A DNA stretch of 64,000 bases from Oscillospiraceae bacterium (GTDB lineage: Bacteria; Bacillota; Clostridia; Oscillospirales; Oscillospiraceae). The DNA lies in NCBI GenBank assembly GCA_902775355.1, contig CACYLY010000008.1, positions 1 to 64,000 of the forward strand, given 5' to 3'. The notes beneath the pieces were generated by a model, which saw only the letters and a list, made by a program, of their open reading frames with translations, searched no databases and had not been told where the DNA came from. Positions within the stretch are counted from its first letter, which is position 1. Every line of letters begins with the position of its first letter. Shown one piece after another: positions 5,924-50,084 of this stretch. The position numbers and the translations under genes were made by a program.

Positions 5924-8900
5924 TCAGTAGATCTCCACATCCTTATACTTCAGGTAGCGCTGCAGGCGGACCACGTCCTTGTTATTGACGCTGCCGTCGC
6001 CGTTGGTGTCCAGGTTGGAAGCCACAACGTCCGTGGGCTCCTGCTTCAGATACTTCTGCAGGCGGATCACATCCTTGTTGTTCACACTGCCGTCGCCGTT
6101 GATGTCGCCGGGGAGGCGCCAGTGGGCGTAGACCGTGGTGTTCTCGGAGAAGGTGGTCTCTGCCGTCACTTCGGTGCCCTGGCAGATGTGGAAGGCGTCT
6201 GCGGCAGGCGCCATATACCAGCCCATGAACACCCAGCCGCCCTCTCGGGTGGGCTCAGGCAGCTCGCCGACGGCCACGCCCGCTTCGATCTCCAGGGCGG
6301 CCGGCTCCACCGTGCCGCCGCAGGCGTCGAAGCTGACGGTGCAGATGCGGGTGAACCGGGCGTAGACCGTCACGTTGCCGGCCGGCATGGTGAAGATGTA
6401 GTTCCCGTCCGCATCCTTCTCGTCGATCACGGTGAAGTGGTCCTCGTCCCCCGTGACTCGGGTGAGACTGGTCAGCACGCAGTCTTCGGCAGGCGTCACC
6501 GTCAGGGAGACGGTCTCGCCCTCCGCGGCAGTCCGCTGATCCGCCGTCACGATGCCGTTCTCCGTTTCCGGAACGGTGACGCGGTAATGCCATACCGCCT
6601 TTACGGTCAGGTCGCCCTCAGGCGTGATGACGTCGTTCTCCGCCTTCAGCTCCGGGTCGTCTCCCAGCTGCCAGCCGCCGAAGCACATTCCCTCCGGCGG
6701 CGTAAAGCCGCAAACAGGAAGCATGACCTGCCGGCCCGGGACGCAGCAGAGGCTCTCCATCGTCCCGCCGCCGCCGTTGGCGTCAAAGCTGAGATCGCAA
6801 AGCACGCCCTGAAACCCGCAGACGGTGCAGCGGTTCTGCTCGTCCATCACGTGCTCTTCCGCGGGGAACGAGAGCTGACAGTGGGGACAGTGCCTCTGGT
6901 GTGTGGTCTCGTTTGCCGTAAATGCGGGTTCCGGATGGTCGCAGGGCTCGATGCGAGCATAGGCATAGCTCTTGCATGTCGACTCGCGATCGCCTGTCAA
7001 GGCGATCCCCAGGACCGTCGGCTCGCCGCCGCTGACCCTTCCATAGCTGACCTTTGCGCTGTCATAGATACTCACACTGCCGTTGGATTTGCCGCCGTCG
7101 CCGCGTCCGAAGGCGCTGGCTGAGTTCATGCCGGAAATCGCGATCACGGTGCCGCCGTTGATGATCACGGTGCCGCCGTCGCCGTCGTCACCGCCGCCGA
7201 TGCCCGCACCGGCATACTCGCCGGAGCTGATGAAGTGCATGATCAGGTTGTAAGCAAGATTCGTCCAGCCCTGATCCTCCTGTTCGAGCCCCGTGGAATC
7301 GTCGGACCACAGGCCGTGGTCCCGGATATAGTTATAATCCAAATATCCGCCGCTTGCCATCACATAGCCGCCGTTCACCGTCAGCGTGCCGCCGTTGCCG
7401 TCGTTGCCGCCGCCGATGCCAGCGCCTTTGTTGCTGGAGATCGCGTAGACGCAGCCGCCGTCAATCGTAACGTTTCCGCCGTTTCCGCCGCCGCCTCCGC
7501 CCTTCAGCGAACCGCCGCCGCCGATGCCAGCGCCCGAGTGGCTCGCGGCAACGACATACGCGTTGTTGATATAAACGTTTCCGCCGTCGCCCGCCTCAGA
7601 GGGCTTCTTTTCGCTGGCGCCGCCGCCGATGCCCGCGCCGAAGCCATTGTTTTCAATCAATACGACGCCGCCGGTGATGCGAATGTCTCCACCCTGGTCC
7701 ATTTCCGCGGCGCCGCCGATGCCCGCGCCCTGGCTCTCCACATAAAGCTCTCCAATATAGCCGCTTGAGATACTGATGCTGATCTCGCCGCCGGAAATGT
7801 TTACAGAACCGCTGGTGCCGCACTCATAATCGCATCCGCCGCCGCCGATGCCCGCGCTTCTGGTCGCAAACATGTTGATGGTAAGCTTGCCGCCGGAGAT
7901 GCTGACGTTTCCGCCGTTGCCGGCATACCCGAAGTTCGCGGCCCCGGCGCCGCCGCCGATGCCCGCGCCGCTTTGGCCGCCGGTATCGATCGTGATCGTG
8001 CCGCCGCTGATGCTGACGTTTCCGCCGTTGCCCGCATGGGTGAACGTGAGTCTCGCCGAGCCGCCGCCGATGCCAGCAGCATAAAGGCCCGCGGTCACAT
8101 TGACGGTGCCGTTATAGATGATCACGGTGCCGCCGTCGCCCGCATTGCCGGAGTAGCCTCTCCCGCCGCCGCCGATGCCGGCGCCGTTCGTGCCGCCGGT
8201 GGTCGTCACGGTGCCGTCGTAGATGGTCACGATGCCGCCCTGGCTGCCGCCTTCACCGCCACCGATGCCAGCGCCGTCGGGGCCGCCGGTGGTCTTCACG
8301 GTGCCGTTATAGATGGTAACGCTGCCGCCGTCTTTTTCATCGCCGCCGCCGATGCCCGCAGCATAGTCGCCGCCTTTGACGGTCAGGCTGCCGTCGTAGA
8401 CGGTGACCGTTCCCCCCTTGACTTCATTGCCGCCGCCGACGCCGGCGCCGTCGCTGCCGCCGGTAGCGGTCAGGCTGCCGCCCAGCATGGTGAAGCTACC
8501 GCAGGAGTCCGGGTTTGCCTCGTCACCGGTACCGACGCCCGCAGCATAGTCGCCGCCGTTGGTCGTGACCGTGCCGCCGTGGATGGTCAGGCTGCCGCTG
8601 CCGGTCTTATCTCCGCCGCCGATGCCCGCGTGATACTCCGGGCCGGTGCAGATCAGTTCGCCCCTATCCTCCGCCTGACCGTAGATGCTCAGACTGTTGC
8701 CCGGGGCAAGCTCGATGCCCTTGCCGCAGGTCAGGGTCGCCCCGTCGCAGAGGACCAGGTGCACGTCGCCGCTGACGGTCAGACGGTTGGAAAAGCTGCG
8801 GCTTTCTGAGAGGATCCAAACGCCGCTGGTCAGGCTCAGGTTTTCGTTATCCTGCAGGGAGGAAATCAGCGTAAACTCCACCGGATTTTTGACGTTTTCC

Positions 8901-10693
8901 TCCACCCGGGAGCCGGTCCAGCGCCGCGAAATGTACGAGTAAGGAGACTCGATGCTCACGCTGACGGGAGCGTTGGGCATCTGGAAGGAGATCCTGTTCG
9001 GCGCCGCCGGATCCGGGGTGAATTCCAGCTCCACCGGCTGGCTGTTCACGTAATAGACAACGTGCCAGGTCCAGCCCTCGAAGGTCTCGCTGCCCTCGTC
9101 GATCAGATTTGCCGTCACGGTGACGGTTTCCCCGACAAAGGTCTCCCACTTGTCCGGATCCAGGCTGAAGTCTGCATACTTTTCCGTCACGACCCACCAG
9201 GAGCGCTCCAGCTCCGCATGGAGGACCGCGTCCGCATCCGGCATGACGAAATCTCCGTAAAAGTGGAGGTGCTCGTCATAGCGCAGGTTTTCCAGGTCGC
9301 GCCGCTGGGCCGCGCCGTCCTCCTCCCAGGTGATCCAGGCGCTTTTGACGCCGTAGCTGCCCATGTTTTCCTCGTGGTCCACATGGAGCTCCGCCGTGAT
9401 GGTATCGCCCGCCGCGGCGCGCTGCTCATTGGGGGAAACGGAAAGGTTGGTCTTGCCCTGGAAGAAGCGGCCCCGCAGCATCTGCCCCGACAGGTCGACG
9501 GGTGCGATGCTGATCCGGTGGCCGATCTTCACGAAATCCGCCGTAATGTGGACGTCGTGCTCGGGCATGGCAAAGGTATAGGTGTAGGTCGTCTCACCGC
9601 TGGAGCTGTAGGGGGAGACGCTGCTGCCGCTGAGCGTCAGCTCCACGGGCCGCTCCCGCCCCTCCTCGTCCAGCCAGAAGGACCGCAGGCCCTCCGGGCC
9701 GTAGGCTGTGGCATAGCGCATCATGACGCTGACGGTCACCTCGTCGCCCAGGCCGGCGCCGGCCTTGTCCGCCGAGACGGTGTTGCCTGTACCCTCCGGG
9801 TCGGAGACGCTGTCCACCGTGACGGCGTATTCTCCCAGCGCGAACTCCGCACGCACGTAGATCGTCTGGTCGGTCTCCTTGATATAGCGGGTGATGTCCT
9901 CCGGCACCACGAAGGTGTAGAGGGAATCGCTCTCCTTTGTCAGCGGGATGGAATAGCCGCCGGAGTAGGGATAGCTCTCGTTGGTGTTGAAGAAGGCATA
10001 AGGGGCGGAATCAAAGACGGTGCCGGGCTTGCGGTCCACCAGGATGGAGACCGTCTCGCCCACCTTGGCGTCCGTCTTGTCCGCCGAAATGGAGCTGCCC
10101 AGACCGCTGGCGTCCACGCTGTAGCAGTCGATGGGATAGCCGCTGTCGATAAACTCGAACTCGGCCCGGATCTCAAAGGTATAGCGGTTGTTGTAGGGTC
10201 CGCCGACAAGAAACTCGCCCCAGTCGCCGTGATCGTCCACGTCATAATAGTATTGCTCGTCCTGTACGCAGACAACGCTCCAGCTCCGGAACTCGTAGCC
10301 CGCCTCCGGGTGGGGATACAGCGTGACCGTCAAGCCGGCGGTGACCTGCTTGCCGAGCGCGCTCGTATTCGTGTAGATGTTCTGATTGTCGGTCACAGTG
10401 CCGCCCACCATATCATCGGCGATTTTGAAGTAGGGATTGAAACGGCCCGAGGGGGGCTCGTTGCTGTTCATCTCCTCCCAGTCGCCCCCGAAGGGCGGTT
10501 CTTCCGGATCCTCTCCCGGGTCCTCTCCCGGCTCTTCCGCCGGCTCGTCCCCGGACAGGATCGTCACGACGCACCCGTCATCCTGTATGTTCCTCAGCTC
10601 CTGCGGCGCTGCAAAGGCAGCCGGCCCCAGGCTCAGGAACAGGACCAGGCACAGAAGCAGGGAAAGAAATCTCTTGCTCGGGCTGTTTTTCAT
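5924..10693 (-). CDS. Giant secreted glycine-rich repeat protein with C-terminal dockerin
   Basis: 1589-aa exported protein. ATG at 10693 is preceded by AAAGGAGGAAA; an upstream in-frame start at 10735 lacks a site. Signal peptide about residues 1-29 (ends AAFAA). Residues about 70-600 hold several beta-rich InlB/Big-like modules (phrases such as VSADKAGAGLGDEVTVSVMM). A long central array (DNA about 7130-8650) has about 20 rungs of the type GGTVTIYDGTVTTTGG..GAGIGGG, probably a right-handed beta-helix. Then come a Cys/His-rich patch (CPHCQLS...CTVCGF) and InlB-like repeats. Residues about 1528-1589 are a type I dockerin with two loops DINGDGSVNNKD and DTNGDGSVNNKD. It is probably a surface or matrix protein that docks to a cohesin; no catalytic motif is visible. 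It has its own promoter and terminator. Confidence 0.9.
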   Translation of the reverse strand: MKNSPSKRFLSLLLCLVLFLSLGPAAFAAPQELRNIQDDGCVVTILSGDEPAEEPGEDPGEDPEEPPFGGDWEEMNSNEPPSGRFNPYFKIADDMVGGTVTDNQNIYTNTSALGKQVTAGLTVTLYPHPEAGYEFRSWSVVCVQDEQYYYDVDDHGDWGEFLVGGPYNNRYTFEIRAEFEFIDSGYPIDCYSVDASGLGSSISADKTDAKVGETVSILVDRKPGTVFDSAPYAFFNTNESYPYSGGYSIPLTKESDSLYTFVVPEDITRYIKETDQTIYVRAEFALGEYAVTVDSVSDPEGTGNTVSADKAGAGLGDEVTVSVMMRYATAYGPEGLRSFWLDEEGRERPVELTLSGSSVSPYSSSGETTYTYTFAMPEHDVHITADFVKIGHRISIAPVDLSGQMLRGRFFQGKTNLSVSPNEQRAAAGDTITAELHVDHEENMGSYGVKSAWITWEEDGAAQRRDLENLRYDEHLHFYGDFVMPDADAVLHAELERSWWVVTEKYADFSLDPDKWETFVGETVTVTANLIDEGSETFEGWTWHVVYYVNSQPVELEFTPDPAAPNRISFQMPNAPVSVSIESPYSYISRRWTGSRVEENVKNPVEFTLISSLQDNENLSLTSGVWILSESRSFSNRLTVSGDVHLVLCDGATLTCGKGIELAPGNSLSIYGQAEDRGELICTGPEYHAGIGGGDKTGSGSLTIHGGTVTTNGGDYAAGVGTGDEANPDSCGSFTMLGGSLTATGGSDGAGVGGGNEVKGGTVTVYDGSLTVKGGDYAAGIGGGDEKDGGSVTIYNGTVKTTGGPDGAGIGGGEGGSQGGIVTIYDGTVTTTGGTNGAGIGGGGRGYSGNAGDGGTVIIYNGTVNVTAGLYAAGIGGGSARLTFTHAGNGGNVSISGGTITIDTGGQSGAGIGGGAGAANFGYAGNGGNVSISGGKLTINMFATRSAGIGGGGCDYECGTSGSVNISGGEISISISSGYIGELYVESQGAGIGGAAEMDQGGDIRITGGVVLIENNGFGAGIGGGASEKKPSEAGDGGNVYINNAYVVAASHSGAGIGGGGSLKGGGGGGNGGNVTIDGGCVYAISSNKGAGIGGGNDGNGGTLTVNGGYVMASGGYLDYNYIRDHGLWSDDSTGLEQEDQGWTNLAYNLIMHFISSGEYAGAGIGGGDDGDGGTVIINGGTVIAISGMNSASAFGRGDGGKSNGSVSIYDSAKVSYGRVSGGEPTVLGIALTGDRESTCKSYAYARIEPCDHPEPAFTANETTHQRHCPHCQLSFPAEEHVMDEQNRCTVCGFQGVLCDLSFDANGGGGTMESLCCVPGRQVMLPVCGFTPPEGMCFGGWQLGDDPELKAENDVITPEGDLTVKAVWHYRVTVPETENGIVTADQRTAAEGETVSLTVTPAEDCVLTSLTRVTGDEDHFTVIDEKDADGNYIFTMPAGNVTVYARFTRICTVSFDACGGTVEPAALEIEAGVAVGELPEPTREGGWVFMGWYMAPAADAFHICQGTEVTAETTFSENTTVYAHWRLPGDINGDGSVNNKDVIRLQKYLKQEPTDVVASNLDTNGDGSVNNKDVVRLQRYLKYKDVEIY

Positions 10694-10743
10694 AAACTGG
10701 TTTCCTCCTTTTTCGTCGGTAAAAAGCCTACACATTTCAGTTT

Positions 10744-11316: not shown

Positions 11317-14300
11317 TCAATGGATCTCCACGTCGTGATACTTCAGCCAGCGCGCCAGACGGGTGGCGTCCTTGTTGTTCACCTTGCCGTCCCCGTTCAC
11401 GTCCAGCGCCGCCTCCACCACTTCCACGTTCTGGCCTTTGAGGTATTTCTGCAGGCGCAGCACGTCCTTGTTGTTCACCGAACCGTCCCCGTTGATATCG
11501 CCGGGGATATAGGTGTAGATCACGATCTCGCCGGGTACCGTCTGGAAGGCCTGGTTCTCCTCGTCGGCGTTGTAGATGTCGTCCTCCTCATAGCTGACGC
11601 TGACCTGGGTCGTCCCGGCCGCCGCGTCCTCCTTCACCCGGAAGCTCAGAGTGACGAACACGCCGTCCTTGGTCTCGTTCTCTCTCGGATCCTCCGCGTA
11701 CCAGGTCAGCGAATCGCCGACCTCTCCCAGGAAGGTGCCGCCGTATTCGCCGGGCGTCACCGCCGTCCACTCCAGCACTGTCTCGTCATAGAGCACGCTG
11801 ATCTCGATGGAGACCACACCCGGGTTCTCCTCGATCCGGACAGGGACCTGGATCTCCTGGCCGACGCGGACTCTGCCGCCGTCGACCACAAGCTTCGCGT
11901 TGGTCTCCGGCGCGTTCTGCTCCCAGATCGCGTACAGGGTCACATTGCCGGTGGGCGTGTAGCTGCCGATGATCCCCTCGGTCGCTGTATCGCTGGTCGC
12001 CCAGCCCTTGAAGGTAAAGCCCTCGCGGGTGGGCGTGGGCAGGGTCACCGCTGCGGTGCTGGTGCTGCTGTTCCACTGGGCATAGAGCGTCGCCGCCGCG
12101 TTGGCGGTGTAGCTCCCGCCGGAGGCATAGCTGGTCCCGCTGCCGTCGGCCTTGGTGTTCCAGTTGTTGAATGTGTAGCTCGTCGTCCTTGCCGCCGTCA
12201 GGCTTGTCGTGTTTACGCTGCCGCCGTTGGCGTTCAAGGTCACGGTATAACTGCCTGCGGAGGCGTTGGCGCGGGTGGGCTTCGTCGTGCTCAGGGTCAG
12301 GGCCACGTCATGAAGCTTCGTCTGCGCCGCCGGAGCGCCCGTACCGCCGTTGGCGTCAAAGGTGATCGTGTAGGGATAGGCCTGCCAGATCGCGTACAGG
12401 GTCACGTTGCCGGTGGGCGTGTAGCTGCCCGTCGTCCCGCTGGTGGCGTTGGCGCTGGTGGCCCAGCCCTTGAAGCTATAGCCCGTGCGGGTAGGCGTGG
12501 GCAGGGTCACCGCCGCGGTCGCGGTGCTGCTGTTCCACTGGGCGTAGAGCGTCGCCGCCGCGTTGGCGGTGTAGCTCCCGCCGGAGGCATAGCTGGTCCC
12601 GCTGCCGTCGGCCTTGGTATTCCAGTTCTTGAAGCTGTAGCTGGTGGTCCGCGCCGCCGTCAGGCTCGTCGTGCTCACGCTGCCGCCGTTGGCGTTCAGG
12701 GTCACGGTATAGCTCCCCGCGGAGGCGTTGGCCCTGCTGGGCTTCGTCGTGCTCAGGGTCAAGGCCACGTCATGAAGCTTCGTCTGCGCCGCCGGAGCGC
12801 CCGTACCGCCGTTGGCGTCATAGCTGATCGTGTAGGGATTGGCCTGCCAGATCGCGTACAGGGTCACGTTGCCGGTAGGCGTGTAGCTGCCCGTCGTCCC
12901 GCTGGTGGCGCTGGTGCTGGTCGCCCAGCCCTTGAAGCTATAGCCCGTGCGGGTAGGCGTGGGCAGGGTCACCGCTGCGGTGCTGGTGCTGCTGTTCCAC
13001 TGGGCGTAGAGCGTCGCCGCCGCGTTGGCGGTGTAGCTCCCGCCGGAGGCATAGCTGGTCCCGCTGCCGTCGGCCTTGGTGTTCCAGTTTTTAAAGCTGT
13101 AGCTGGTGGTCCTTGCCGCCGTCAGGCTCGTCGTGCTCACGCTGCCGCCGTTGGCGTTCAGGGTCACGGTATAGCTGCCCGCGGAGGCGTTGGCGCGCGT
13201 CGGCTTGACGCTGGAGAGGGTCATAGGAACGTCCCTCGTTTTGGTCTGGGCCGACGGAGCGCCCGTACCGCCATTGGCATTGAAGCTGACCGTATAGGTC
13301 GTAGTCGCGCCGCTGCCGTCGATAATCATCCAGGTTTGCTGTGTATAAGCAATCACCAGATCCTGATCGGAAAGTCCGGTATTGGGATAAGACTGTTTCA
13401 CATAGCTCGGCAAAAGGCTATCGGACAGCTTGATCCGACCACTCGCAACACTCGGAGCTGGGTCGGCACAGTAGAAAGTATCCGTGGCGGCATCATAATC
13501 TGTCAGGAGCACAGCGTGCTTGTAACTGCTGTTATGGTGAACATATATAACTATTCCTTCCGGATGTGTAATGAGATTCTCAATAAAGTACTGCTTTTTC
13601 CCGTTAAGATCGCCAAGCGAGAGGTTGAGCTCTGACGACATTCCGTAGGAATACACATGCTTTCCTCCATAGGTATAGTCAAATACCATGCCGGAAGAAG
13701 ACCATGCAACATCGCCAACAGAACTTCCGGTTATGCTGCTCCAAGCGCTGTCGCCGTCCAATATCGCTCTTCTTCTGAGCATCATGACGTTCGCAATAAG
13801 CGTGCATTGCTTGCTGCCGGATTCCTGTTTAAGGAATACGCTGGGATCGTTCATGGATACCAATCCGCCGGAAGTACCGCCGATCGAGAAAGATGAATCG
13901 ATCAGTGTGGCCGTGCCGTTGGAATTCGTCGCTTTCACGACGTAACGGTAGCTTCCGCTTGCCAGTCCTCCAAAAGCAATCGCGTCGTTCAGTCCGCCGG
14001 TTTGAATATTATAGCTATAGGAATTTGGATTGGTGGAATAACTCAAGACGGCTGTGCCGGATGCGTTGTAAACATAGGCCGAGACATTGATCAGCTTGCT
14101 GCCGGAGGAGATGATCCCACGAAGGCCAAAGTTCTCCCCCTGTGTCAGCGTGCCGCTGGGGTAGACCGCCCCGGAGATCGTGGGCGGATTGGAATCACTA
14201 ATAGGCCCACTTCCTTCAATAATCATCCAGGTTTGCTGTGTATAAGCAATCACCAAATCCTGATCGGAGAGTCCGGTATTTGGATAAGACTGCTTCACAT

Positions 14301-15624
14301 AGCTCGGCAAAAGGCTATCGGACAGCTTGATCCGGCCACTCGCAACACTCGGGGCCGGGTCGGCACAGTAGAAAGTATCCGCGGCGGCATCATAATCTGT
14401 CAGGAGCACAGCGTGCTTATAACTGCTGTTATGGTGAACATATATGACTATTCCCTCAGGATGCGTAATGAGATTGTCAATCAAGTACTGCTTTTTCCCG
14501 TTGAGGTCGCCAAGCGAGAGATTGAGCTCTGACGACATTCCATAGGAATACACACGCTTTCCACCATAGGTATATTCAAACGCCATACCAGAGGAAGACC
14601 ATGCAACATTTCCAACGGAGCTTCCCGTTATGCTGCTCCAAGCACTGTCTCCGTCAATGATTGCTCGTCTTCTGAGCATCATAACATTCGCAATAAGCGT
14701 ACATTGCTTGCTGCCGGATTCCTGTTTGAGGAACACACTGGGATCATCGATCGATACATCTACGGAATTAATGACGTCAGTCCTAGTACCACTTGTGTAA
14801 TTCGGCCGCAGATAGGTGCTGATCGAGCTGCTGTCACGGGCGATGGGAACATAGGTCCTGACCGGCCGGGTCATGGTCGTGCCAGCGCCGTCGCCGCCGC
14901 CGTTGCCGTCGATATAATACACGTTGTCGGCGTCAACAGCGCAGACAATGCCGATGTGCTTGAACTCATATTCCGAGTTGCAGAAGGTGATCAAATCACC
15001 GGGCTCCGGCGTAAAGCTGCTTCTGTCGGTCCGCACATAATTGCCCGTGGAGAAGTTCACATAGGGATCCCCGTTGTTCAGGCTGGCATATCCGGCATCG
15101 TCAAAATAATACAAAACGCCGTGGTTGTTGTTGGCCATGTTGACTACAAGGTCTTTTCCATAGGGCTGCAGACTGCTGGGGAAAAGATCCGGGGCGGCGA
15201 TCAACCCGCACCAGCTGACAAAATAAGAACACCAGGCCAGGGTGAAGCCGAAGTCCGAAGCGGTCTTCCCCTCCTGAGCCAAGGCGACCAGAAGCAGGTC
15301 GGTCCTGGGATCACCGGTGAGCTGATAATCGCTGGATACGTCCTCAGGCTCCAGCTCATCCTCGATCGGCTCGGAAATGACGACTTCCGCTTCCTCTGGC
15401 GCATCCTCGTCTTCCGGGACGCCGGGGGCGTCGTCCCCTACGGTGTCATCCGGGGCTTCCCCGTCTTCTCCCTCGTCCTCGCGGGCGTGACCGCAGTCGT
15501 TCTCCTCCTCCTGGATGACTTCTGCGTCCTCTCCCTCTTCCGCAAGGGCGGAGGTGGGGAAAAAGCTCAGTACCATCACCAGGCAGAGCAGAAGCGCAAA
15601 GAGCTTTCTGGCTGTGTTGTTCAT
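11317..15624 (-). CDS. Secreted CHAP, double C39-like peptidase, InlB-repeat, cohesin and dockerin protein
   Basis: 1435-aa exported protein; ATG at 15624 follows AAGGAG (a GTG at 15639 is not favoured). Layout: signal peptide 1-28; acidic linker 29-98; CHAP amidase/endopeptidase domain about 105-265 (Cys132 in AWCSYFVSWC, His223 in FKHIGIV); C39-like peptidase domain 293-470 (Cys308, His404, Asp422); Ig-like segment about 480-585; a near-identical second C39-like domain 592-768 (Cys607, His703, Asp721); three almost identical InlB/Flg_new repeats about 770-1235; a cohesin about 1240-1370 (VGQEIQVPVRI, SVLYDETVLEW, KDGVFVTLSFRV); a dockerin 1373-1435 (DINGDGSVNNKD, DVNGDGKVNNKD). CHAP and C39 domains cleave peptidoglycan peptides or proteins. 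A cohesin and a dockerin in one chain could let it polymerise or bridge other dockerin proteins (inference). Confidence 0.92.
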   Translation of the reverse strand: MNNTARKLFALLLCLVMVLSFFPTSALAEEGEDAEVIQEEENDCGHAREDEGEDGEAPDDTVGDDAPGVPEDEDAPEEAEVVISEPIEDELEPEDVSSDYQLTGDPRTDLLLVALAQEGKTASDFGFTLAWCSYFVSWCGLIAAPDLFPSSLQPYGKDLVVNMANNNHGVLYYFDDAGYASLNNGDPYVNFSTGNYVRTDRSSFTPEPGDLITFCNSEYEFKHIGIVCAVDADNVYYIDGNGGGDGAGTTMTRPVRTYVPIARDSSSISTYLRPNYTSGTRTDVINSVDVSIDDPSVFLKQESGSKQCTLIANVMMLRRRAIIDGDSAWSSITGSSVGNVAWSSSGMAFEYTYGGKRVYSYGMSSELNLSLGDLNGKKQYLIDNLITHPEGIVIYVHHNSSYKHAVLLTDYDAAADTFYCADPAPSVASGRIKLSDSLLPSYVKQSYPNTGLSDQDLVIAYTQQTWMIIEGSGPISDSNPPTISGAVYPSGTLTQGENFGLRGIISSGSKLINVSAYVYNASGTAVLSYSTNPNSYSYNIQTGGLNDAIAFGGLASGSYRYVVKATNSNGTATLIDSSFSIGGTSGGLVSMNDPSVFLKQESGSKQCTLIANVMMLRRRAILDGDSAWSSITGSSVGDVAWSSSGMVFDYTYGGKHVYSYGMSSELNLSLGDLNGKKQYFIENLITHPEGIVIYVHHNSSYKHAVLLTDYDAATDTFYCADPAPSVASGRIKLSDSLLPSYVKQSYPNTGLSDQDLVIAYTQQTWMIIDGSGATTTYTVSFNANGGTGAPSAQTKTRDVPMTLSSVKPTRANASAGSYTVTLNANGGSVSTTSLTAARTTSYSFKNWNTKADGSGTSYASGGSYTANAAATLYAQWNSSTSTAAVTLPTPTRTGYSFKGWATSTSATSGTTGSYTPTGNVTLYAIWQANPYTISYDANGGTGAPAAQTKLHDVALTLSTTKPSRANASAGSYTVTLNANGGSVSTTSLTAARTTSYSFKNWNTKADGSGTSYASGGSYTANAAATLYAQWNSSTATAAVTLPTPTRTGYSFKGWATSANATSGTTGSYTPTGNVTLYAIWQAYPYTITFDANGGTGAPAAQTKLHDVALTLSTTKPTRANASAGSYTVTLNANGGSVNTTSLTAARTTSYTFNNWNTKADGSGTSYASGGSYTANAAATLYAQWNSSTSTAAVTLPTPTREGFTFKGWATSDTATEGIIGSYTPTGNVTLYAIWEQNAPETNAKLVVDGGRVRVGQEIQVPVRIEENPGVVSIEISVLYDETVLEWTAVTPGEYGGTFLGEVGDSLTWYAEDPRENETKDGVFVTLSFRVKEDAAAGTTQVSVSYEEDDIYNADEENQAFQTVPGEIVIYTYIPGDINGDGSVNNKDVLRLQKYLKGQNVEVVEAALDVNGDGKVNNKDATRLARWLKYHDVEIH
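13320..14748 (-). repeat. Tandem duplication encoding the two C39-like domains
   Basis: DNA 14217-14748 and 13320-13851 are direct repeats of about 530 bp, offset by 897 bp, with only scattered substitutions. High identity at the DNA level implies recent duplication or gene conversion inside the gene. The adjoining InlB-type units at about 11900-13310 repeat with a period of about 460 bp and are likewise nearly identical. Confidence 0.85.
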
Positions 15625-15731: not shown

Positions 15732-15810
15732 TTTGTTATCTATAAAATATCAAGTGTTATTTTTTGCTTTATTTCTTTTTTGCGCGATCCGGGTACAATA
15801 TAGCAGGGTG

Positions 15811-16068
15811 ATGCACATGAAGAGCGCAAAGGAAGCCGATTTCGATCACAGGCAGAAGTATATCGAGCTGGGTTACAACATCTCCTACTATCGCAAGCAC
15901 GCGGGCCTGACCCAGGAAAAGCTGGCCGAGAAGGTGGGTATCAGCCGACCCCACATGGGTGCCATCGAAGCGCCCAACCTGTGCCGCCCCATCTCGCTGG
16001 ACCTGCTCTTTTCCTTTGCCGACGCCCTGGGCGTGGAACCCTACAAGCTGCTGGTCTTTCGGGAGTGA
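15811..16068 (+). CDS. XRE-family helix-turn-helix transcriptional regulator
   Basis: Small cytoplasmic DNA-binding protein of 85 aa. The helix-turn-helix lies at about residues 20-75: LGYNISYYRKHAGLTQEKL, then EKVGISRPHMGAIE, ending LLFSFADALGVEPYKLL, as in Cro/C1/XRE proteins. ATG at 15811 or 15817 is the likely start; the open frame extends to 15733 but that part is a hydrophobic, AT-rich reading of the promoter region. A -10 like TACAAT lies at about 15794-15799. It is divergent from the cohesin/dockerin peptidase gene and may regulate it or itself. It has no sensor domain. Confidence 0.82.
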   Translation: MHMKSAKEADFDHRQKYIELGYNISYYRKHAGLTQEKLAEKVGISRPHMGAIEAPNLCRPISLDLLFSFADALGVEPYKLLVFRE

Positions 16069-20030: not shown

Positions 20031-20063
20031 CGCTTCCTCCTTTCCGGAGTGTCGGTCGCTTGC

Positions 20064-21323: not shown

Positions 21324-21401
21324 TGTCTTCTCCTATCGTCACGATCCGGGACAGCAAGCGGGACGAGCAGCGCCCGCCCCGCGTCACCTTTTTCTGTGTT
21401 C

Positions 21402-21983: not shown

Positions 21984-22048
21984 GTTCAACTCTCCTTTCA
22001 TGGTCAAAACGCGCTTATCCAAGAGAGCATATCCGAAATGGGATTCTC

Positions 22049-43001: not shown

Positions 43002-46000
43002 ATGAAGCGCATGAATCGTCTGTTGAGTATTCTCCTGGTCCTGGTGTTCCTGGCGAGCCTGTTCCCGACCGCGGCCCTGGCCGAGGAGCCGGAGGAACCG
43101 GCCCCCGCCGAGGAGCCCGGGATCGAGGAGCCCGCCCCTGCTGAGGAGCCCGGAGAGGACCCGGAACCCATCGAGGAGCCCGAGGAGGAGCCGGAACCCC
43201 TGACGCCCCTGGAGGGCGAGGACCCGGAGGCCCTGCCCCAGCCGGGAGACGAGCCCCAGGAGATCATCGCCTCCGGGCAGCTCACACAGACTATTTCCTG
43301 GTCTGTGGAGAGCAGCAGCGGCGGCACGACCCTGTACATCAGCGCTGCCAACACCACCTACGAGAACGTCGATCTCAGCGAGGGCGGCGCGGCCCCCTGG
43401 TACGAATACCGGAGCCAGATCCACACCGTGCAAGTGGGCTCGGGCATCACCCGCATCGGCAACTACTGGTTCTACGGGATGGGAGCCAACGAATTCAAGT
43501 TCGCCGACTCCGTGTACGAGATCGGCGACCACGCCTTTGAGGGCTGCTCGGGTCTGGGCAAGACCCAGAATTTCGGCGAGCTGGGCGGCATCCTGCCCAA
43601 GAACCTCGAGAAGATCGGCTCCTACGCTTTCAAGGACTGCACCGGGCTTGTGGCCGCCTATAATTTTCCCGGCACCCTGACCAGTCTGGACGTGGGCGCC
43701 TTCTACGGCTGCACGAACCTGACCACGGCTTATGTCCCCGCCGCCGTGGGCTCGGTCCCCATGAGCTGCTTTGAAAACTGCACCAAGCTGTACGCGGTGG
43801 CGCTGCCCGAGGGCCTGACCAGGATCTGGAGCTCCGCCTTCAAGAATTCCGGTCTGCAGTCCCTGTACACGCCGTCTACCATGCAGTACGTGATGGCCAA
43901 TGCCTGCGAGGGCTGCGGGGATCTGCAGTACGCCGTCTTCAACGAGGGCCTGCGCTCCATCGGCGGCAGCGCCTTCAAGGACTGCGCCAAGCTGAAGAAC
44001 GTGGAGCTCTATGGCCCTGCCGGCATGTGGGGGTTCAGCATCGGAAATGACGCCTTCAAGAACTGCCCCAAGATTGAAAGCGTGGACTTTCACGGCAAGC
44101 TGAGCGAGTGGGTCCACCTGATGCTGCCCAATATCGGCGAGGGCAACGAAGACCTGCTGAACGCCCAGCTGAACTGCGAGCCTGACGGGATGTGCGGCGA
44201 AAATCTGACCTGGTATTTTGACGAAAGCGACAACACCCTGTACATCAGCGGCACCGGCGAGATGTATACGAACTGGGGCATGTCCAACCGTCCCTGGGAG
44301 GATCACAAGGACGCGATCGAGAACGTCCGCATCGGCATGGGCTGCACCTCTATCGGAGACTTCGCCTTCTACGGGATCACGATCCAGAACCTGTACCTGC
44401 CCAACACCCTGACCCAGATCAGGCGCTACGCCTTCAACAACAGTCTGAGCACGGGCAGCGATCTGTTCTTCGAGGGCACCAAGGCGGAATATGACGCCAT
44501 CGACGTGGATGCGACCTGCGTGCTGCAGCTGAGCTGGCCGACCAAGCACTACGAGGCCATCGACCGGGGCAAGTGCGGCGATTACATGAACTGGGTCTTT
44601 GACGGCGAGACCCTTTACATCTCCGGTCCCAACAGCGGCGTCATGTGGGACTTTGACACCGCCGGGGAGCAGCCCTGGTACGCCTACCGGGATGAAGTCA
44701 AGAAGGTACAGTTTTCCTCCGGCTTCTACGGCTATGTGGGCGACAACGCTTTCTGCGGCTTCTCGGCCCTGGAGACGGTGGACCTGGCCGCCGGCCCCCA
44801 CACTCTGGGCGACTACGCCTTTTACGGCTGCACCAATCTGAGCAGCATCTATCTGCAGAAGGACTACATCCAGCGCATCGGCCGCTACTGCTTTGCCTGC
44901 TGCACCAGCCTGACGTCCGTTACGACCTCGCCCTACATGCTGGAGCTGGGCGACTACGCCTTCTACGGCTGCACCTCTCTGACGGGTTTCGTATGCAACA
45001 GCGGGGATTCCAGCCTGTATATCCGTACCCTTCCCGATCATTTCCTGGAGGGCTGCACGGCCCTGACCCATGTGAGCATCCCCTATATCACCGGCATTGG
45101 GGAGAACTGCTTTGCGGGCTGCACGTCTTTGCCCGAGGTCAGCCTGCCCCGGGTCAAGACCATCGGCAACGGCGCCTTTTATAACTGCAGCGCCCTGTCC
45201 GTCATCGGCACCCCCGCCCTCACCGCCATCGGGGACGAGGCCTTTGCAAGATGCACGGCTCTGCACACCGTCTACTTCCCCACCACGCTGCAGACCCTGG
45301 GAGAGGCGGCCTTCAGCGGAAGCGGCCTGAACGGCGCGCTGAGCCTGCCCGACGGGATGACCGAGATCGCCTCCTTCGCCTTTTCCGACACCGCCATCAC
45401 CTCCGTCACCATCCCCACCAGCGTACTCACCGTGCGGGAGGGCGCCTTCTCCGCCTGCCATTCTCTGGCGGACGTGTACTATGACGGGGCCCAGGCCATG
45501 TGGGACCGGATCACCATCGAGGACTCCAACGAGCCCCTGCTGGAGGCGGAGCTGCATCTGAACCCCAGCAGCGGCGAGCTCGGCGAGAATATCTCCTGGT
45601 CCCTGAGCAGCGACGGGGTGCTGACCATCTCCGGCACCGGCAGCATGGACGACTTTGCCTCGGCCGCGGAGCGGCCCTGGCATACCTCCGCCGACGCCAT
45701 CCACACCGTCCGGGTGCTGCCGGGCGTGACCACCGTCGCAAAATACAGCTTTAAAGATTTGACCAACCTCACCACCGTGGAGCTGGCGGATTCCGTCACT
45801 GCCATCTACGACTACGCCTTCACCAACTGCAATTCGCTGACCGAGCTGGAGCTCCCGCCCCGTCTGTGGTGCATCGGCAACTTCTGCTTCCAAAACTGCA
45901 TCTCCCTGACCGGGATCCAGATGCCGGACACCGTCACCTTCCTCGGCGTCTATGCCTTTGGATACTGCAGGTCGCTTCAGACTGCCAACGTCTCCCCGAA

Positions 46001-49000
46001 CCTCAGAGACAGCAACCTCACCGCCAGGGCCTTTGAGGGCTGCTCGAAGCTGGAGAGCATCGACATTCCCGAGGGCATACAGACCATCGGACTCTACGCC
46101 TTTAACGGCTGCTCCCGTCTGACGGTCGTATATCTGCCCAGCAGCCTGCTCCCCGCGTCCGGTGACACCTATACTGTGGACCACGACGCCTTCAACGGCT
46201 GCACCGCCCTCACCGATGTGTACTACAACGGCACACTGACCGAGTGGAAGGCTCTGAACGTCAATGAGACCGGCAACGAGCCCCTGGCAGCCGCGCTGCT
46301 CCATGTTCTGCCGGAAACCGGCAGCTTCGGCGAGGGCCTCACCTGGGCCTATGAAGACGGCATTCTGACCATCAGCGGCAGCGGCCCCATGCCCAACTAC
46401 GCCGAACCCACCCAGCAGCCCTGGTTCGACTACGAGGACATGATCCTCCACGTCCGGGTGCTGGACGGCGTCACCACCGCCGGCGACTACGCCTTCTTCG
46501 GCTTCAACCGCCTGCAGACCATGGAGCTGGCCGACAGCGTGACGTTCATCGGCTACCGCAGCTTCGCCTTCTGCCCCCAGATCGAGAGCCTGGAGCTCCC
46601 GGCGAACCTGGTGACCATCGGCCTGAGCGCCTTTGAGGGCTGCTCCGGCTTCCCCGGCCAGAACGTGGTGCTGCCGGAAACCGTGAAGAACATCAGCGAC
46701 AAGGCCTTTATGGGCTGCGGCTTCGACTCCGTGACCCTGCCCGCCTCCCTGGAGCTTCTGGGCAACGGCGTCTTCCAGAGCTGCCCGAACCTGCTGTTCG
46801 CCGACTTCGCCGAGGGCTGCAGCCTGACGGCGATCCCCGAGGACAGCTTCCGGGACTGCCCCAATTTCATGCTGGCAGATGTACCGGAGGGCATTACCAC
46901 CATTGGGAAGAACGCCTTCCGCAACGACCCGAACCTGGAACTGGCGAGGCTCCCCGCCTCTCTCACCCTGGTGAAGCAGTACGCCTTCTACGGCTGCTCC
47001 GGTCTGACGCAGGTCTCCTACGGCGGCACCCTGGACGAATGGAACGCCATCACCATCGAGAGCTACAACCAGCCGCTTCTGAACGCGACCCTGATCTACG
47101 TCCCCTACCGGGGCCAGCTCTGTGCCGACATCTGGTGGTGGATCAACTCCGAGGGCGAGCTCATCGTCCAGGGCACAGGCTCCATGCCCGACTTCGCCTC
47201 TGCCTATGGCCAGCCCTGGTATGAGTACCGGGAGCAGATCACCGGCATCATAGTCTCGGGTGTGGACTACATCGGCGACTATGCCTTCGCGGAGCTGTCC
47301 AAGGTCACCCAGGTATGGAAGAGCAACAGCATCACCGCCATCGGCGACCATGCCTTTGAAAAATGCAGCAGCCTGCTCAACTTCAACTGCCCGGACTCTC
47401 TGGAGAGCATCGGCGACAAGGCCTTCTACCGCTGCACCGCGCTGGAGAGCGTGAACTTCAACGGTCAGTTGGCCGACATCGGCGAGCGCGCCTTTGACAG
47501 CTGCCGCAGCCTCACCGACCTGAGCCTGCCCGCCTCCCTCTTGTACGGCGGCGTCGGCAAATCCGCCTTCTCCGGCTGCGAGAGCCTGCAGTTCCTGCAG
47601 ATCGAAGGGCTTGAGGAGATCCCCTCCGGCGCCTTCTACCACTGCGACGCGCTGGAGAGCGTGTCCCTCCCCCGGAGCCTGACCTCCGTGGGCGTGGGCG
47701 CCTTCAGCTGCTGCGACGCGCTGCTGGACGTGTGGTACGAGGGGCGGATGGTCGAGTGGAATCAGATCGACATCGGGGCGAACAACGAGCCGCTGCTGAA
47801 CGCCAACCTCCACTGCGCGCCCAATGGGGGCGTGCTGGCCAACGGCCTGATCTGGAGCTGGCAGAACGGCGTGCTCACCGTCTCCGGCAACGCGCCCATG
47901 CCCGACTTTGCAAACAACTGGGAAACCCCCTGGTACGGGCTGGAGCCTTACACCACCGCCATCGTCATCGAGGAGGGCGTCAAATCTGTGGGCAAGAGCG
48001 CCTTCGTGACCTTCACCGAGGTCACGGAGCTCAATCTGCCCGAGGGCCTCACGGAGATCGGGAAATACGCCTTCGACCACTGCAGCGGTCTGGAGAGCGT
48101 GACCCTGCCCGCGAGCCTGGTCTCTGTGGATCTGGCCGCCTTCGGTCACTGCACGGCCCTGGCCGACGTGTGGTACCGCGGCACGCCCTACGCCTGGGAG
48201 ATGGAGCTGGCCGTCGCGGGCTACAACGAGCCGCTGAATAACGCCACGCTCCATTACACCATGGAGGGCGTTCCCATCGACGCCGAGCACTTCCCCTGCG
48301 ACGCCTTCTGCGCCTATGTGCGCGACGAGTTCGATCCCGACAGCAACTGGCTCCTGACGCCCGATGAGATCGGCGAGGCCTGCACTGTCGACGTCACCGG
48401 CGACGACTTCACCTCCCTGCAGGGGATCGAATACCTGACGGAGCTGGAGGAGCTCTACTGCTACGGCTGCAATCTGACGGAGCTGGACGTGTCTTCCCTG
48501 GAGCACCTCTATTACGTGGACTGCGACGCGAACCAGCTGACCGCCGACACGCTCCGCCTGCCCGCGGGCCTGACCATTCTGATCTGCTCCGGCAACGGCG
48601 GCTTGAAGAGCCTGGATCTCAGCGGACTTCCCCATCTGTCCGATCTGAGCTGCGACGAGACCGGCCTGACCGAGCTGGATCTCTCCGCGAACCCCGATCT
48701 GAGATACCTGTACTGCCAGAAAAACGAGCTGACCAGCCTGGATGTGAGCGGCAACACGAAGCTGGCGATCCTGGTTTGCGCCGACAACCCGCTGACCGAG
48801 CTGAACCTGGGCGAGAGCGAGAACCTGGGCGTCCTGGACTGCTATCAAACGGATCTGACCAGACTGGATATCACCGGCTGCCCCATCCTGCTGAACGCCT
48901 ATCGGAACGGCACCTTCCGGGAGGATGACAACGGAGCCTGGATCTGGTACACGCCCAACACCAGTTATCGGCTGAGGGTCGATCCCGACACGGTGATCGT

Positions 49001-50084
49001 CACCGACCACGACGGCATCCCCGTGGACGAGGAGCACTTCCCCGACCCGATTTTCCGCGCCTACGTGGCGGAGAACTTTGACCTCGACCGCAACGGTTAC
49101 CTGACGGATTTCGAGTGCGAAAGCGTCCGTGAAATTGATGTGGTCGACAAGAGGATCAGCTCGCTCCTGGGCATCGAATACTTCTACGAGGCGACGGTGC
49201 TGGATGCGGAAAGCAACGAATTGACCTCCCTGGATCTCAGCCACAATGTCTGCCTCGTATCGGTATCCCTCCCCTACAACCAGTTGACGAGCCTGGATAT
49301 CAGCGGACTGGACCAGCTGGAGCTTCTGGACGTGGAATTGAACGGCCTGACCAGCCTGGATCTGAGCACCAACACCGCCCTGCTGAGCCTGTACTGCAGT
49401 GAGAACGCGCTCACCGCTCTGGACGTCTCCGCCTGCACGGAGCTGCAAAAGCTGTATTGCAACGACAACGCCCTGACGGAGCTGGACGTGAGCGCCAACA
49501 CCGCCCTGACGGAGCTGTTCTGCGACGCCAACGCCCTGACGGAGCTGGATCTGAGCAAAAACACCGCCCTCCAGATGCTCGGCGTTTCCCAATGTGAACT
49601 GAGCGCTCTGGACGTCAGCACGCTGCCCGCGCTGCAGCGGCTGGCTTGCTACGACAACCCGCTGAGCAGCCTGAAGCTGGGGAGCCTGGAAGCCCTGCGT
49701 TATCTGAGCTGCTATGACGTCCCCAGCCTGAACACGCTGGACATCTCCGGCTGCCCCCTGGTGATCGACGCCTATCAGAACGGTGCACAGACCGACTATT
49801 CGGAATACGGCTTTGTGCATTACGAGATCAACGGTCATATCCTGGAGATCGCCCCGGGCCAGACGGTGGCGACCGAGTTCATCCCCGACCATGTCCCCGG
49901 CGACATCAACGGCGACGGTTCGGTGAACAACAAAGACGTGATCCGCCTCCAGAAATACCTGAAGGATCCGACCACGACGGTCGACGAGGCGGCCCTGGAC
50001 GTGAACGGGGACGGCAAGGTCAACAACAAGGACCTGATCCGCCTGACGCGCTGGCTGAAGTATCACGACGTGGAGATCCACTGA
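43002..50084 (+). CDS. Giant secreted leucine-rich-repeat protein with C-terminal dockerin
   Basis: 2360-aa exported protein; ATG 43002 follows GAAGGAGGAAACGAGC. Signal peptide residues 1-28 (ends TAALA), then a Glu/Pro linker to about 85. Seven super-repeats follow (starting about nt 43275, 44187, 44570, 45577, 46322, 47112, 47830), each with a Trp-rich module like LTISGTGSMDDFA plus PW followed by BspA-type LRR_5 repeats (YAFYGCTSL, LPASL..IG). From about nt 48290 come two internalin-like LRR blocks (LTSLDLS, LTELDVS, DCDANQL), each led by HFP...F.AYV and an EF-hand-like loop; the second, DLDRNGYLTDFE, is canonical. The end is a type I dockerin (DINGDGSVNNKD, DVNGDGKVNNKD, tail YHDVEIH). 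Probably a calcium-dependent surface adhesin or matrix component that docks to a cohesin; ligand unknown. Confidence 0.95.
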   Translation: MKRMNRLLSILLVLVFLASLFPTAALAEEPEEPAPAEEPGIEEPAPAEEPGEDPEPIEEPEEEPEPLTPLEGEDPEALPQPGDEPQEIIASGQLTQTISWSVESSSGGTTLYISAANTTYENVDLSEGGAAPWYEYRSQIHTVQVGSGITRIGNYWFYGMGANEFKFADSVYEIGDHAFEGCSGLGKTQNFGELGGILPKNLEKIGSYAFKDCTGLVAAYNFPGTLTSLDVGAFYGCTNLTTAYVPAAVGSVPMSCFENCTKLYAVALPEGLTRIWSSAFKNSGLQSLYTPSTMQYVMANACEGCGDLQYAVFNEGLRSIGGSAFKDCAKLKNVELYGPAGMWGFSIGNDAFKNCPKIESVDFHGKLSEWVHLMLPNIGEGNEDLLNAQLNCEPDGMCGENLTWYFDESDNTLYISGTGEMYTNWGMSNRPWEDHKDAIENVRIGMGCTSIGDFAFYGITIQNLYLPNTLTQIRRYAFNNSLSTGSDLFFEGTKAEYDAIDVDATCVLQLSWPTKHYEAIDRGKCGDYMNWVFDGETLYISGPNSGVMWDFDTAGEQPWYAYRDEVKKVQFSSGFYGYVGDNAFCGFSALETVDLAAGPHTLGDYAFYGCTNLSSIYLQKDYIQRIGRYCFACCTSLTSVTTSPYMLELGDYAFYGCTSLTGFVCNSGDSSLYIRTLPDHFLEGCTALTHVSIPYITGIGENCFAGCTSLPEVSLPRVKTIGNGAFYNCSALSVIGTPALTAIGDEAFARCTALHTVYFPTTLQTLGEAAFSGSGLNGALSLPDGMTEIASFAFSDTAITSVTIPTSVLTVREGAFSACHSLADVYYDGAQAMWDRITIEDSNEPLLEAELHLNPSSGELGENISWSLSSDGVLTISGTGSMDDFASAAERPWHTSADAIHTVRVLPGVTTVAKYSFKDLTNLTTVELADSVTAIYDYAFTNCNSLTELELPPRLWCIGNFCFQNCISLTGIQMPDTVTFLGVYAFGYCRSLQTANVSPNLRDSNLTARAFEGCSKLESIDIPEGIQTIGLYAFNGCSRLTVVYLPSSLLPASGDTYTVDHDAFNGCTALTDVYYNGTLTEWKALNVNETGNEPLAAALLHVLPETGSFGEGLTWAYEDGILTISGSGPMPNYAEPTQQPWFDYEDMILHVRVLDGVTTAGDYAFFGFNRLQTMELADSVTFIGYRSFAFCPQIESLELPANLVTIGLSAFEGCSGFPGQNVVLPETVKNISDKAFMGCGFDSVTLPASLELLGNGVFQSCPNLLFADFAEGCSLTAIPEDSFRDCPNFMLADVPEGITTIGKNAFRNDPNLELARLPASLTLVKQYAFYGCSGLTQVSYGGTLDEWNAITIESYNQPLLNATLIYVPYRGQLCADIWWWINSEGELIVQGTGSMPDFASAYGQPWYEYREQITGIIVSGVDYIGDYAFAELSKVTQVWKSNSITAIGDHAFEKCSSLLNFNCPDSLESIGDKAFYRCTALESVNFNGQLADIGERAFDSCRSLTDLSLPASLLYGGVGKSAFSGCESLQFLQIEGLEEIPSGAFYHCDALESVSLPRSLTSVGVGAFSCCDALLDVWYEGRMVEWNQIDIGANNEPLLNANLHCAPNGGVLANGLIWSWQNGVLTVSGNAPMPDFANNWETPWYGLEPYTTAIVIEEGVKSVGKSAFVTFTEVTELNLPEGLTEIGKYAFDHCSGLESVTLPASLVSVDLAAFGHCTALADVWYRGTPYAWEMELAVAGYNEPLNNATLHYTMEGVPIDAEHFPCDAFCAYVRDEFDPDSNWLLTPDEIGEACTVDVTGDDFTSLQGIEYLTELEELYCYGCNLTELDVSSLEHLYYVDCDANQLTADTLRLPAGLTILICSGNGGLKSLDLSGLPHLSDLSCDETGLTELDLSANPDLRYLYCQKNELTSLDVSGNTKLAILVCADNPLTELNLGESENLGVLDCYQTDLTRLDITGCPILLNAYRNGTFREDDNGAWIWYTPNTSYRLRVDPDTVIVTDHDGIPVDEEHFPDPIFRAYVAENFDLDRNGYLTDFECESVREIDVVDKRISSLLGIEYFYEATVLDAESNELTSLDLSHNVCLVSVSLPYNQLTSLDISGLDQLELLDVELNGLTSLDLSTNTALLSLYCSENALTALDVSACTELQKLYCNDNALTELDVSANTALTELFCDANALTELDLSKNTALQMLGVSQCELSALDVSTLPALQRLACYDNPLSSLKLGSLEALRYLSCYDVPSLNTLDISGCPLVIDAYQNGAQTDYSEYGFVHYEINGHILEIAPGQTVATEFIPDHVPGDINGDGSVNNKDVIRLQKYLKDPTTTVDEAALDVNGDGKVNNKDLIRLTRWLKYHDVEIH

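What the first reader, a model, noticed from the sequence alone, without database searches (positions are those of the whole stretch)
11317..15624. A secreted protein with both cohesin and dockerin on a CHAP plus double C39-like scaffold
Seen: CHAP (Cys132, His223), two C39-like domains with full Cys/His/Asp sets, InlB repeats, then a cohesin-like domain (VGQEIQVPVRI, SVLYDETVLEW, KDGVFVTLSFRV) and a dockerin. Known: cohesin-dockerin pairs build cellulosomes. Here no cellulase is attached; the cargo would be peptidases, LRR and beta-helix proteins. Inference: a self-assembling or chain-forming surface system for binding and cutting proteins, mucin or cell walls.
Basis: partly seen in the sequence, partly recalled or inferred. 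Interest (0 to 1): 0.78.

Follow-up and report, generated by a model that had tools for sequence, protein, structure and literature searches.

The report
Peptidase carrying cohesin and dockerin together
A secreted bacterial enzyme, whose closest relatives come from ruminant guts, ends in both halves of the plug-and-socket pair that builds cellulosomes, apparently to couple peptidases and binding proteins instead of cellulases; the pairing has precedents, the cargo is the unusual part.

Summary
In detail: one secreted 1435-aa protein (11317-15624, minus strand) with CHAP, two C39-like domains, InlB repeats, a cohesin and a C-terminal dockerin. The cohesin passes Pfam's cut-off, is modelled at pLDDT 92-98 and resembles solved type I cohesins. 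The assembly holds two cohesins (one apparently interrupted) and 15 dockerin hits; 14 of the 15 proteins were scanned and showed no glycosidase. Cohesin and dockerin co-occur in 18 of 102 genomes of the genus; 4 have only one. Relatives carry the same cohesin-dockerin tail on peptidase, lectin and LRR proteins, with 10-residue spacing in 19 of 20. This protein's dockerin has the contact pair Asn-Lys seen in 14 of 16 dockerin rows of the genome, and its cohesin has Glu at the matching contact position; statistical support for that match is weak once related sequences are merged. Best reading: an enzyme-bearing adaptor docking in trans, perhaps forming chains. Binding is not shown. Precedents exist (R. 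bromii Amy4, P. guangzhouensis): a new variant of a known kind.

The parts
11317..15624 (-). Whole gene: secreted CHAP / C39-like x2 / InlB / cohesin / dockerin protein, 1435 aa plus stop
15541..15624 (-). Signal peptide (residues 1-28, judged by eye)
   Evidence: coordinates
14770..15339 (-). CHAP domain region (residues 96-285; Cys132, His223, Asp239)
14200..14754 (-). C39-like domain 1 (residues 291-475; Cys308, His404, Asp422)
13876..14181 (-). Region between the C39-like domains (residues 482-583); similar stretches occur in other secreted proteins of the family; Ig-like by eye only
13303..13860 (-). C39-like domain 2 (residues 589-774; Cys607, His703, Asp721), 93% identical to domain 1
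11911..13296 (-). InlB / Listeria-Bacteroides repeats (residues 777-1238); 462-bp DNA period, 3 copies
11515..11901 (-). Type I cohesin (residues 1242-1370; Glu1274 at the position of CipA-type Asp39)
11320..11505 (-). Type I dockerin (residues 1374-1435), Asn-Lys contact pair in both repeats (Lys1386, Lys1418)
15733..16068 (+). Divergent HTH_3 (XRE-like) regulator; the same sequence over the 98 residues of the G006 C77 frame stands beside the nearest relative gene
5924..10735 (-). Next dockerin gene downstream: beta-helix / InlB protein with C-terminal dockerin of the same contact pair (predicted partner or cargo)
43002..50084 (+). LRR protein with C-terminal dockerin of the same contact pair (predicted partner or cargo)

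Best explanation
The protein is an enzyme-bearing monovalent adaptor. Its three cysteine-peptidase-type domains are displayed outside the cell. Its dockerin plugs, with calcium, into a type I cohesin: either a surface-anchored single-cohesin protein of the kind relatives encode, or the cohesin of another copy of this protein. Its own cohesin offers one socket to any of about twelve other Asn-Lys-type dockerin proteins of the genome (LRR, beta-helix, InlB, subtilase). This builds short linear or mixed assemblies of peptidases and binding proteins rather than cellulases. Shown here: the domains, the cohesin fold, the shared contact pair, the co-occurrence, the recurrence of the tail. Inferred: binding, surface location, chain growth, catalysis and substrate.
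For: Cohesin over Pfam cut-off and with cohesin fold. Dockerin with the same contact pair in both repeats. NK in 14 of 16 dockerin rows of the genome, the two others being weak internal dockerins of subtilases. Cohesin residue at the Asp39 position is Glu; among cohesins linked to a dockerin (same ORF or next gene) Glu occurs in 8 of 11 with NK and 0 of 25 with other pairs, p 5e-6 uncorrected. That cohesin Asn37 and Asp39 contact the dockerin pair is stated in PMC5772552 (passages). In one genome (G093) an NK dockerin gene precedes a Glu cohesin gene and a Leu-Ile dockerin gene precedes an Asn cohesin gene. Cohesin and dockerin together in 18 of 102 genus genomes, cohesin alone 1, dockerin alone 3, p 5e-16 uncorrected. 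Dockerin ORF directly upstream of a stand-alone cohesin ORF in 17 of 29 (hand count); C-terminal hydrophobic segment in 7 of 29. Tail shared by peptidase, lectin and LRR proteins. R. bromii Amy4, with the same pair on an amylase, is proposed to self-aggregate or to recruit other amylases (PMC5814915, passages).
Against: No binding was measured or modelled; AlphaFold gave the dockerin blocks only 42-69 pLDDT. When cohesins at least 50% alike are merged, the Glu/NK link falls to 2 of 4 clusters against 0 of 17 (p 0.03), and at 40% there is no power left; L130, L134 and L135 have NK dockerins without an acid, and L057 has Glu with no linked dockerin seen. In this assembly the only other cohesin gene appears interrupted and no anchoring scaffoldin was found (87.5% complete). 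Dockerins of other proteins here also follow their neighbouring domain closely, so tight spacing alone is not special to the pair. Co-occurrence is inflated by shared descent and by genes holding both modules.
Confidence: 0.56

Rival explanations
1. The cohesin is only a structural partner of the dockerin, like the X module of X-dockerin dyads: it stabilises the dockerin and does not bind in trans. The protein is then ordinary dockerin cargo for a separate scaffoldin.
For: Spacing between the cohesin's last strand and the dockerin is 10 residues in 19 of 20 unique dyads from several families, as expected of a packed dyad. RflaF_05439, with two tandem papain-like modules, ends in an X-dockerin dyad said to bind ScaE (PMC3573020, abstract and section 13).
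Against: The docking-face residue fits the genome's dockerin pair (weak after merging); stand-alone cohesins of the same family sit beside dockerin genes.
Confidence: 0.22
2. Cohesin and dockerin of one molecule close on each other (cis), giving an inhibited or storage form.
For: Both modules are in one chain and look compatible.
Against: About 10 residues separate the last cohesin strand from the dockerin's first loop; from recalled geometry the docking face lies on the other sheet, so the dockerin could hardly reach it. The model gives no confident packing.
Confidence: 0.06
3. The cohesin is a remnant: its partners or anchor are decaying in this lineage and only the peptidase part matters.
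For: The second cohesin gene appears interrupted and a third copy is a short relic; only 19 of 102 genomes of the genus have any cohesin hit.
Against: The cohesin here is intact, 80-86% identical to two intact genes of a sister species, and modelled with high confidence.
Confidence: 0.1

Closest known systems
Ruminococcus bromii Amy4 (amylosome)
   Same: Secreted enzyme with one dockerin and one cohesin; proposed to self-aggregate through its own pair or recruit other dockerin enzymes (PMC5814915, passages)
   Different: Cargo is an alpha-amylase; here cysteine-peptidase-type domains and InlB repeats; binding was measured there for some pairs, not here
Paenibacillus guangzhouensis monovalent adaptors
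   Same: 28 proteins with a single dockerin-cohesin pair, many with an N-terminal enzyme, and surface anchors (PMC11557425, section 15 and passages)
   Different: Enzymes are glycoside hydrolases and anchors are SLH type; nearly all dockerins there sit on cohesin proteins, here most dockerin proteins lack a cohesin
R. flavefaciens RflaF_05439
   Same: Two tandem papain-like (NlpC/P60-type) modules followed by a C-terminal two-module dockerin dyad; said to attach to ScaE on the surface (PMC3573020, abstract and section 13)
   Different: The module before the dockerin is an X module, not a cohesin; the C39-like profile found no related PDB chain at E<=1
Limousia mucinolysome
   Same: Gut cohesin-dockerin system outside cellulose degradation, with dockerin peptidases (PMC12997984, passages); the same paper names an A. 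muciniphila GH31 with one cohesin and one dockerin
   Different: Multi-cohesin scaffoldins and many dockerin glycosidases, neither found here

Membership tests
Type I cohesin | Sequence match to PF00963 over the curated cut-off | tested here: met
   44.9 bits, cut-off 24.1
Type I cohesin | Beta-sandwich fold of solved cohesins | tested here: met
   pLDDT 92-98; Foldseek best 6kgf_A E 6.6e-11, 5n5p_A TM 0.82 by target
Type I cohesin | Binds a dockerin with calcium | not testable with these tools
   no binding assay or complex prediction at hand
Type I dockerin | PF00404 over cut-off, two repeats with contact pairs | tested here: met
   54.5 bits, cut-off 22.9; NK in both repeats
Monovalent adaptor scaffoldin | One cohesin and one dockerin on one secreted protein | tested here: met
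   signal peptide by eye
Monovalent adaptor scaffoldin | A separate anchoring cohesin for its dockerin | tested here: inconclusive
   Some relatives have membrane-anchored cohesins; own second cohesin gene appears interrupted, assembly 87.5% complete
Cellulosome | Scaffoldin with several cohesins | tested here: not met
   Two single cohesins in the own, incomplete assembly
Cellulosome | Dockerin-bearing plant-cell-wall glycosidases | tested here: not met
   None by Pfam in the proteins behind 14 of 15 dockerin hits; some are partial, the 126-aa relic was not scanned
CHAP peptidase/amidase | PF05257 match and Cys/His catalytic residues | tested here: inconclusive
   25.7 bits against cut-off 26; Cys and His invariant in 6 of 6, third residue Asp; the profile's PDB hits are phage and cell-wall hydrolases, best E 0.0026
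C39-like peptidase (PF13529) | Profile match and Cys/His/Asp set | tested here: inconclusive
   9 of 10 members match at E<=1, best 1.5e-5, the window's first repeat does not; Cys and His invariant, Asp 9 of 10; fold model poor, pLDDT 52

The most novel reading that the evidence does not exclude
A lineage of gut Oscillospiraceae has turned the cohesin-dockerin pair into a general C-terminal coupling: peptidases, lectins and LRR adhesins carry plug and socket of one lineage-specific type, so that they polymerise head to tail from a membrane-anchored cohesin into mixed surface chains without a large multi-cohesin scaffoldin and without glycosidases.
Probability: 0.28. Interest if true: 0.72.

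Novelty: new variant of a known kind. Interest (0 to 1): 0.5.

Why it matters
If right, the pair known from cellulosomes is also a general way for gut bacteria to string peptidases, lectins and adhesins on their surface, each part carrying its own plug and socket. The fixed tail, the lineage-specific contact pairs and the dockerin-cohesin gene pairs give natural couplings and directly testable partners in uncultured gut bacteria in which no dockerin glycosidase was seen.

Tried and rejected
A structure of the C39-like domain from the window's two repeats alone gave pLDDT 52 and was not searched. The C39-like profile found no related PDB chain (two rows at E 0.31 and 0.63, judged chance). Pattern-based scans of viral contigs confirmed no relative of the cohesin or the C39-like domain. 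A third cohesin-like hit on C79 (E 0.2) is antisense to other ORFs and was dropped. A short cohesin-dockerin ORF in G101 looked like a stand-alone adaptor; the InlB-like end of a repeat before it and the missing start make it the tail of a longer, frame-broken gene, so the idea was dropped. The idea that tight spacing is special to the dyad was weakened, since other dockerins follow InlB repeats closely. The Glu-Lys rule fails in 3 of 11 linked cohesins and loses most of its support when related cohesins are merged; I lowered two odds for that. Rows left out of that count: L003 (contact strand missing), fragments without the position (L046 second frame, L120 dyad), contigs already counted under another locus id (L125, L126, L128, L129, L133), and cohesins without a linked dockerin. 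An earlier hand count of 23 non-NK rows (used) was wrong; the recount is 25. The 29 stand-alone cohesin ORFs are not a random sample: many were fetched for a nearby dockerin, several are cut by contig ends, one (in L058) is a weak fragment, and the cohesins of L054 and L055 seen were missed by my profile and not counted; two short ORFs (L042, L135) whose hydrophobic stretch is the signal peptide were not counted as anchored. The long-frame hits of G062, G070, G080 and G088 C42 were not fetched. Of ten dyad proteins scanned, one (L118) gave no Pfam cohesin at E<=0.01 and one (L115) was under the cut-off. Literature: the listings showed no paper on a cohesin-dockerin pair on CHAP or C39 proteins; I opened passages or sections of seven papers only, and the library lacks most subscription journals.

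Full report
What is there. The minus-strand gene 11317-15624 encodes 1435 residues with an N-terminal signal peptide (by eye), an acidic stretch, a CHAP region, two C39-like domains 93% alike, a stretch between them, InlB repeats, a cohesin and a C-terminal dockerin. Pfam puts cohesin at 44.9 bits (cut-off 24.1) and dockerin at 54.5 bits (22.9). CHAP scores 25.7 bits, just under 26; its Cys132 and His223 are invariant in six aligned sequences, and the third residue is Asp239 where the other five have Glu. The C39-like assignment rests on relatives: 9 of 10 aligned members match Peptidase_C39_2 at E<=1 (best 1.5e-5), the window's first repeat does not; Cys and His are invariant and Asp is present in 9 of 10. 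A structure model of that domain failed (pLDDT 52).

The cohesin is real. A model of the last 196 residues built on 14 sequences has block pLDDT 92-98 over the cohesin and 42-69 over the dockerin. The 50 Foldseek rows shown are by title cohesins or cohesin-containing complexes, led by C. acetobutylicum CohA2 (E 6.6e-11), with R. flavefaciens ScaB cohesin 5 reaching TM 0.82 by target length. A sequence profile finds 28 PDB sequences, by name cohesins or scaffoldin parts (two are labelled Endoglucanase, but titles those entries as the sixth ScaB cohesin with a Cel5 dockerin), best E 1.1e-11.

The genome. The assembly (2.86 Mb, 92 contigs, 87.5% complete) has two cohesins over the cut-off and 15 dockerin hits; a profile of 13 cohesins of this group found nothing more than a relic on C61 and a chance hit. 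The second cohesin, on C38, follows a LRR-dockerin gene but lacks part of the docking strand, and a Cna_B protein follows in another frame, so it appears interrupted. The proteins behind 14 of the 15 dockerin hits were scanned, some of them cut by contig or locus ends: LRR, beta-helix, InlB, two subtilases, this protein, and one with only InlB and dockerin hits; no glycosidase (one sub-threshold hit to a carbohydrate-binding family). Three sortase hits exist.

Relatives. Of 13 named loci, 8 titles give a source, and all 8 are ruminant gut samples; the window's own source is not known. In the genus, 19 of 102 genomes have a cohesin hit and 21 of 102 a dockerin hit; 18 have both, 80 neither (Fisher p 5e-16). 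Related genomes are not independent, some hits are weak, and genes with both modules add to the overlap. Of nine genus genomes with a tandem gene, eight have a further cohesin hit. The tail sits on ten relative proteins of six genomes scanned, with CHAP plus NlpC/P60, ricin and C-type lectins with a weak C39 hit, LRR_5, fn3, Big_2 or InlB repeats and no glycosidase family listed at E<=0.01; Pfam's cohesin was missing in one and under the cut-off in another. Of 200 genomes of the family, 33 (own included) matched the CHAP/C39 part, but outside the own genome no match listed covered more than about 210 of its 710 residues, so the whole combination was seen only here. From the glycine of the last cohesin strand (alanine in one) to the dockerin's GD there are 10 residues in 19 of 20 unique dyads and 14 in the other. 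Stand-alone cohesin ORFs have a dockerin ORF directly upstream on the same strand in 17 of 29 (in some the upstream ORF is itself a tandem gene) and a C-terminal hydrophobic segment in 7 of 29 (sample biased as told in Tried and rejected).

Do plug and socket match? In a known type I pair, cohesin Asn37 and Asp39 contact a two-residue motif of the dockerin (PMC5772552, passages), and Asn37 is called a specificity hot spot (PMC12484212, one passage). Here the two-residue motif is Asn-Lys in 14 of 16 dockerin rows of the genome, this protein's included (three of the 14 show only one repeat); the two exceptions are weak internal dockerins of subtilases. The alignment with a CipA cohesin puts Glu1274 at Asp39. 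Glu occurs there in 8 of 11 cohesins linked to NK dockerins and in 0 of 25 linked to others (p 5e-6 without correction). Merging cohesins at least 50% alike leaves 2 of 4 against 0 of 17 clusters (p 0.03), and at 40% nothing can be said. L130 (Lys), L134 (Arg) and L135 (Gln) break the rule. G093 gives a contrast inside one genome: NK dockerin beside a Glu cohesin, Leu-Ile dockerin beside an Asn cohesin. In G006 the dyad dockerins share NK with the other dockerins read (9 of 14 hits read, 9 of 9 NK); in G091 the two dyads share Gly-Met with one neighbour while another dockerin differs; in G088 and G089 the pairs are mixed and the dyads fall within that mix.

Mechanism. The best reading is an enzyme-bearing monovalent adaptor: dockerin into a surface or chain cohesin, cohesin open to one more dockerin protein. 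Domain content, fold and contact pair are shown; docking, surface display, chain growth and catalysis are inferred. The substrate is open: the CHAP domain, and NlpC/P60 in one relative, point to peptidoglycan peptides; the C39-like domains could cut protein.

What is known. R. bromii Amy4 carries both modules and is proposed to self-aggregate or to recruit others (PMC5814915, passages). P. guangzhouensis has 28 single dockerin-cohesin proteins, many with glycoside hydrolases (PMC11557425, section 15). R. flavefaciens RflaF_05439 has two tandem papain-like modules and an X-dockerin said to bind ScaE (PMC3573020, abstract and section 13). Limousia mucinolysomes include dockerin peptidases (PMC12997984, passages). 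So the pairing is known; a tail of this kind spread over peptidases, lectins and LRR proteins with no glycosidase seen did not show in the listings. I file it as a new variant of a known kind.

Regulation. A divergent HTH_3 gene stands beside the gene; the 98 residues of the matching frame read the same beside the G006 C77 gene, and a different HTH-like ORF (by eye) stands beside the G006 C57 gene.

Noticed in passing
L003:1308-4611 (G000 C38): Second cohesin gene of the genome: signal peptide and cohesin lacking part of the docking strand, with a Cna_B protein following in another frame; may be decay or assembly error.
   Followed up: partly
L008:11914-12291 (G000 C61, minus strand): Relic of another cohesin-dockerin tail: end of a cohesin and a single dockerin repeat.
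   Followed up: partly
L003, L047, L052 (C-terminal ends): Cohesin-linked proteins share a C-terminal region ending in a motif like YLYNxAAxAYF; no Pfam family was listed there for L003 and L047; it may be a surface-attachment domain.
   Followed up: no
window 15733-16068 and L044:9230-9523: Divergent HTH_3 regulator with the same sequence next to the window gene and its G006 relative, although the cohesins differ by 14%.
   Followed up: partly
L110 and L111 (G093): One genome with two dockerin classes, each next to its own cohesin gene: a natural pair of possibly orthogonal couplings.
   Followed up: partly
L046 (G034) against L045 (G007): A closely similar cohesin gene is frame-split in one MAG and open in the other.
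   Followed up: no
window 53179-55347 (-): CotH-kinase family protein.
   Followed up: no
window 17622-23374 (-): Lon, ClpX and trigger factor genes near each other, an ordinary housekeeping cluster beside the dockerin genes.
   Followed up: no
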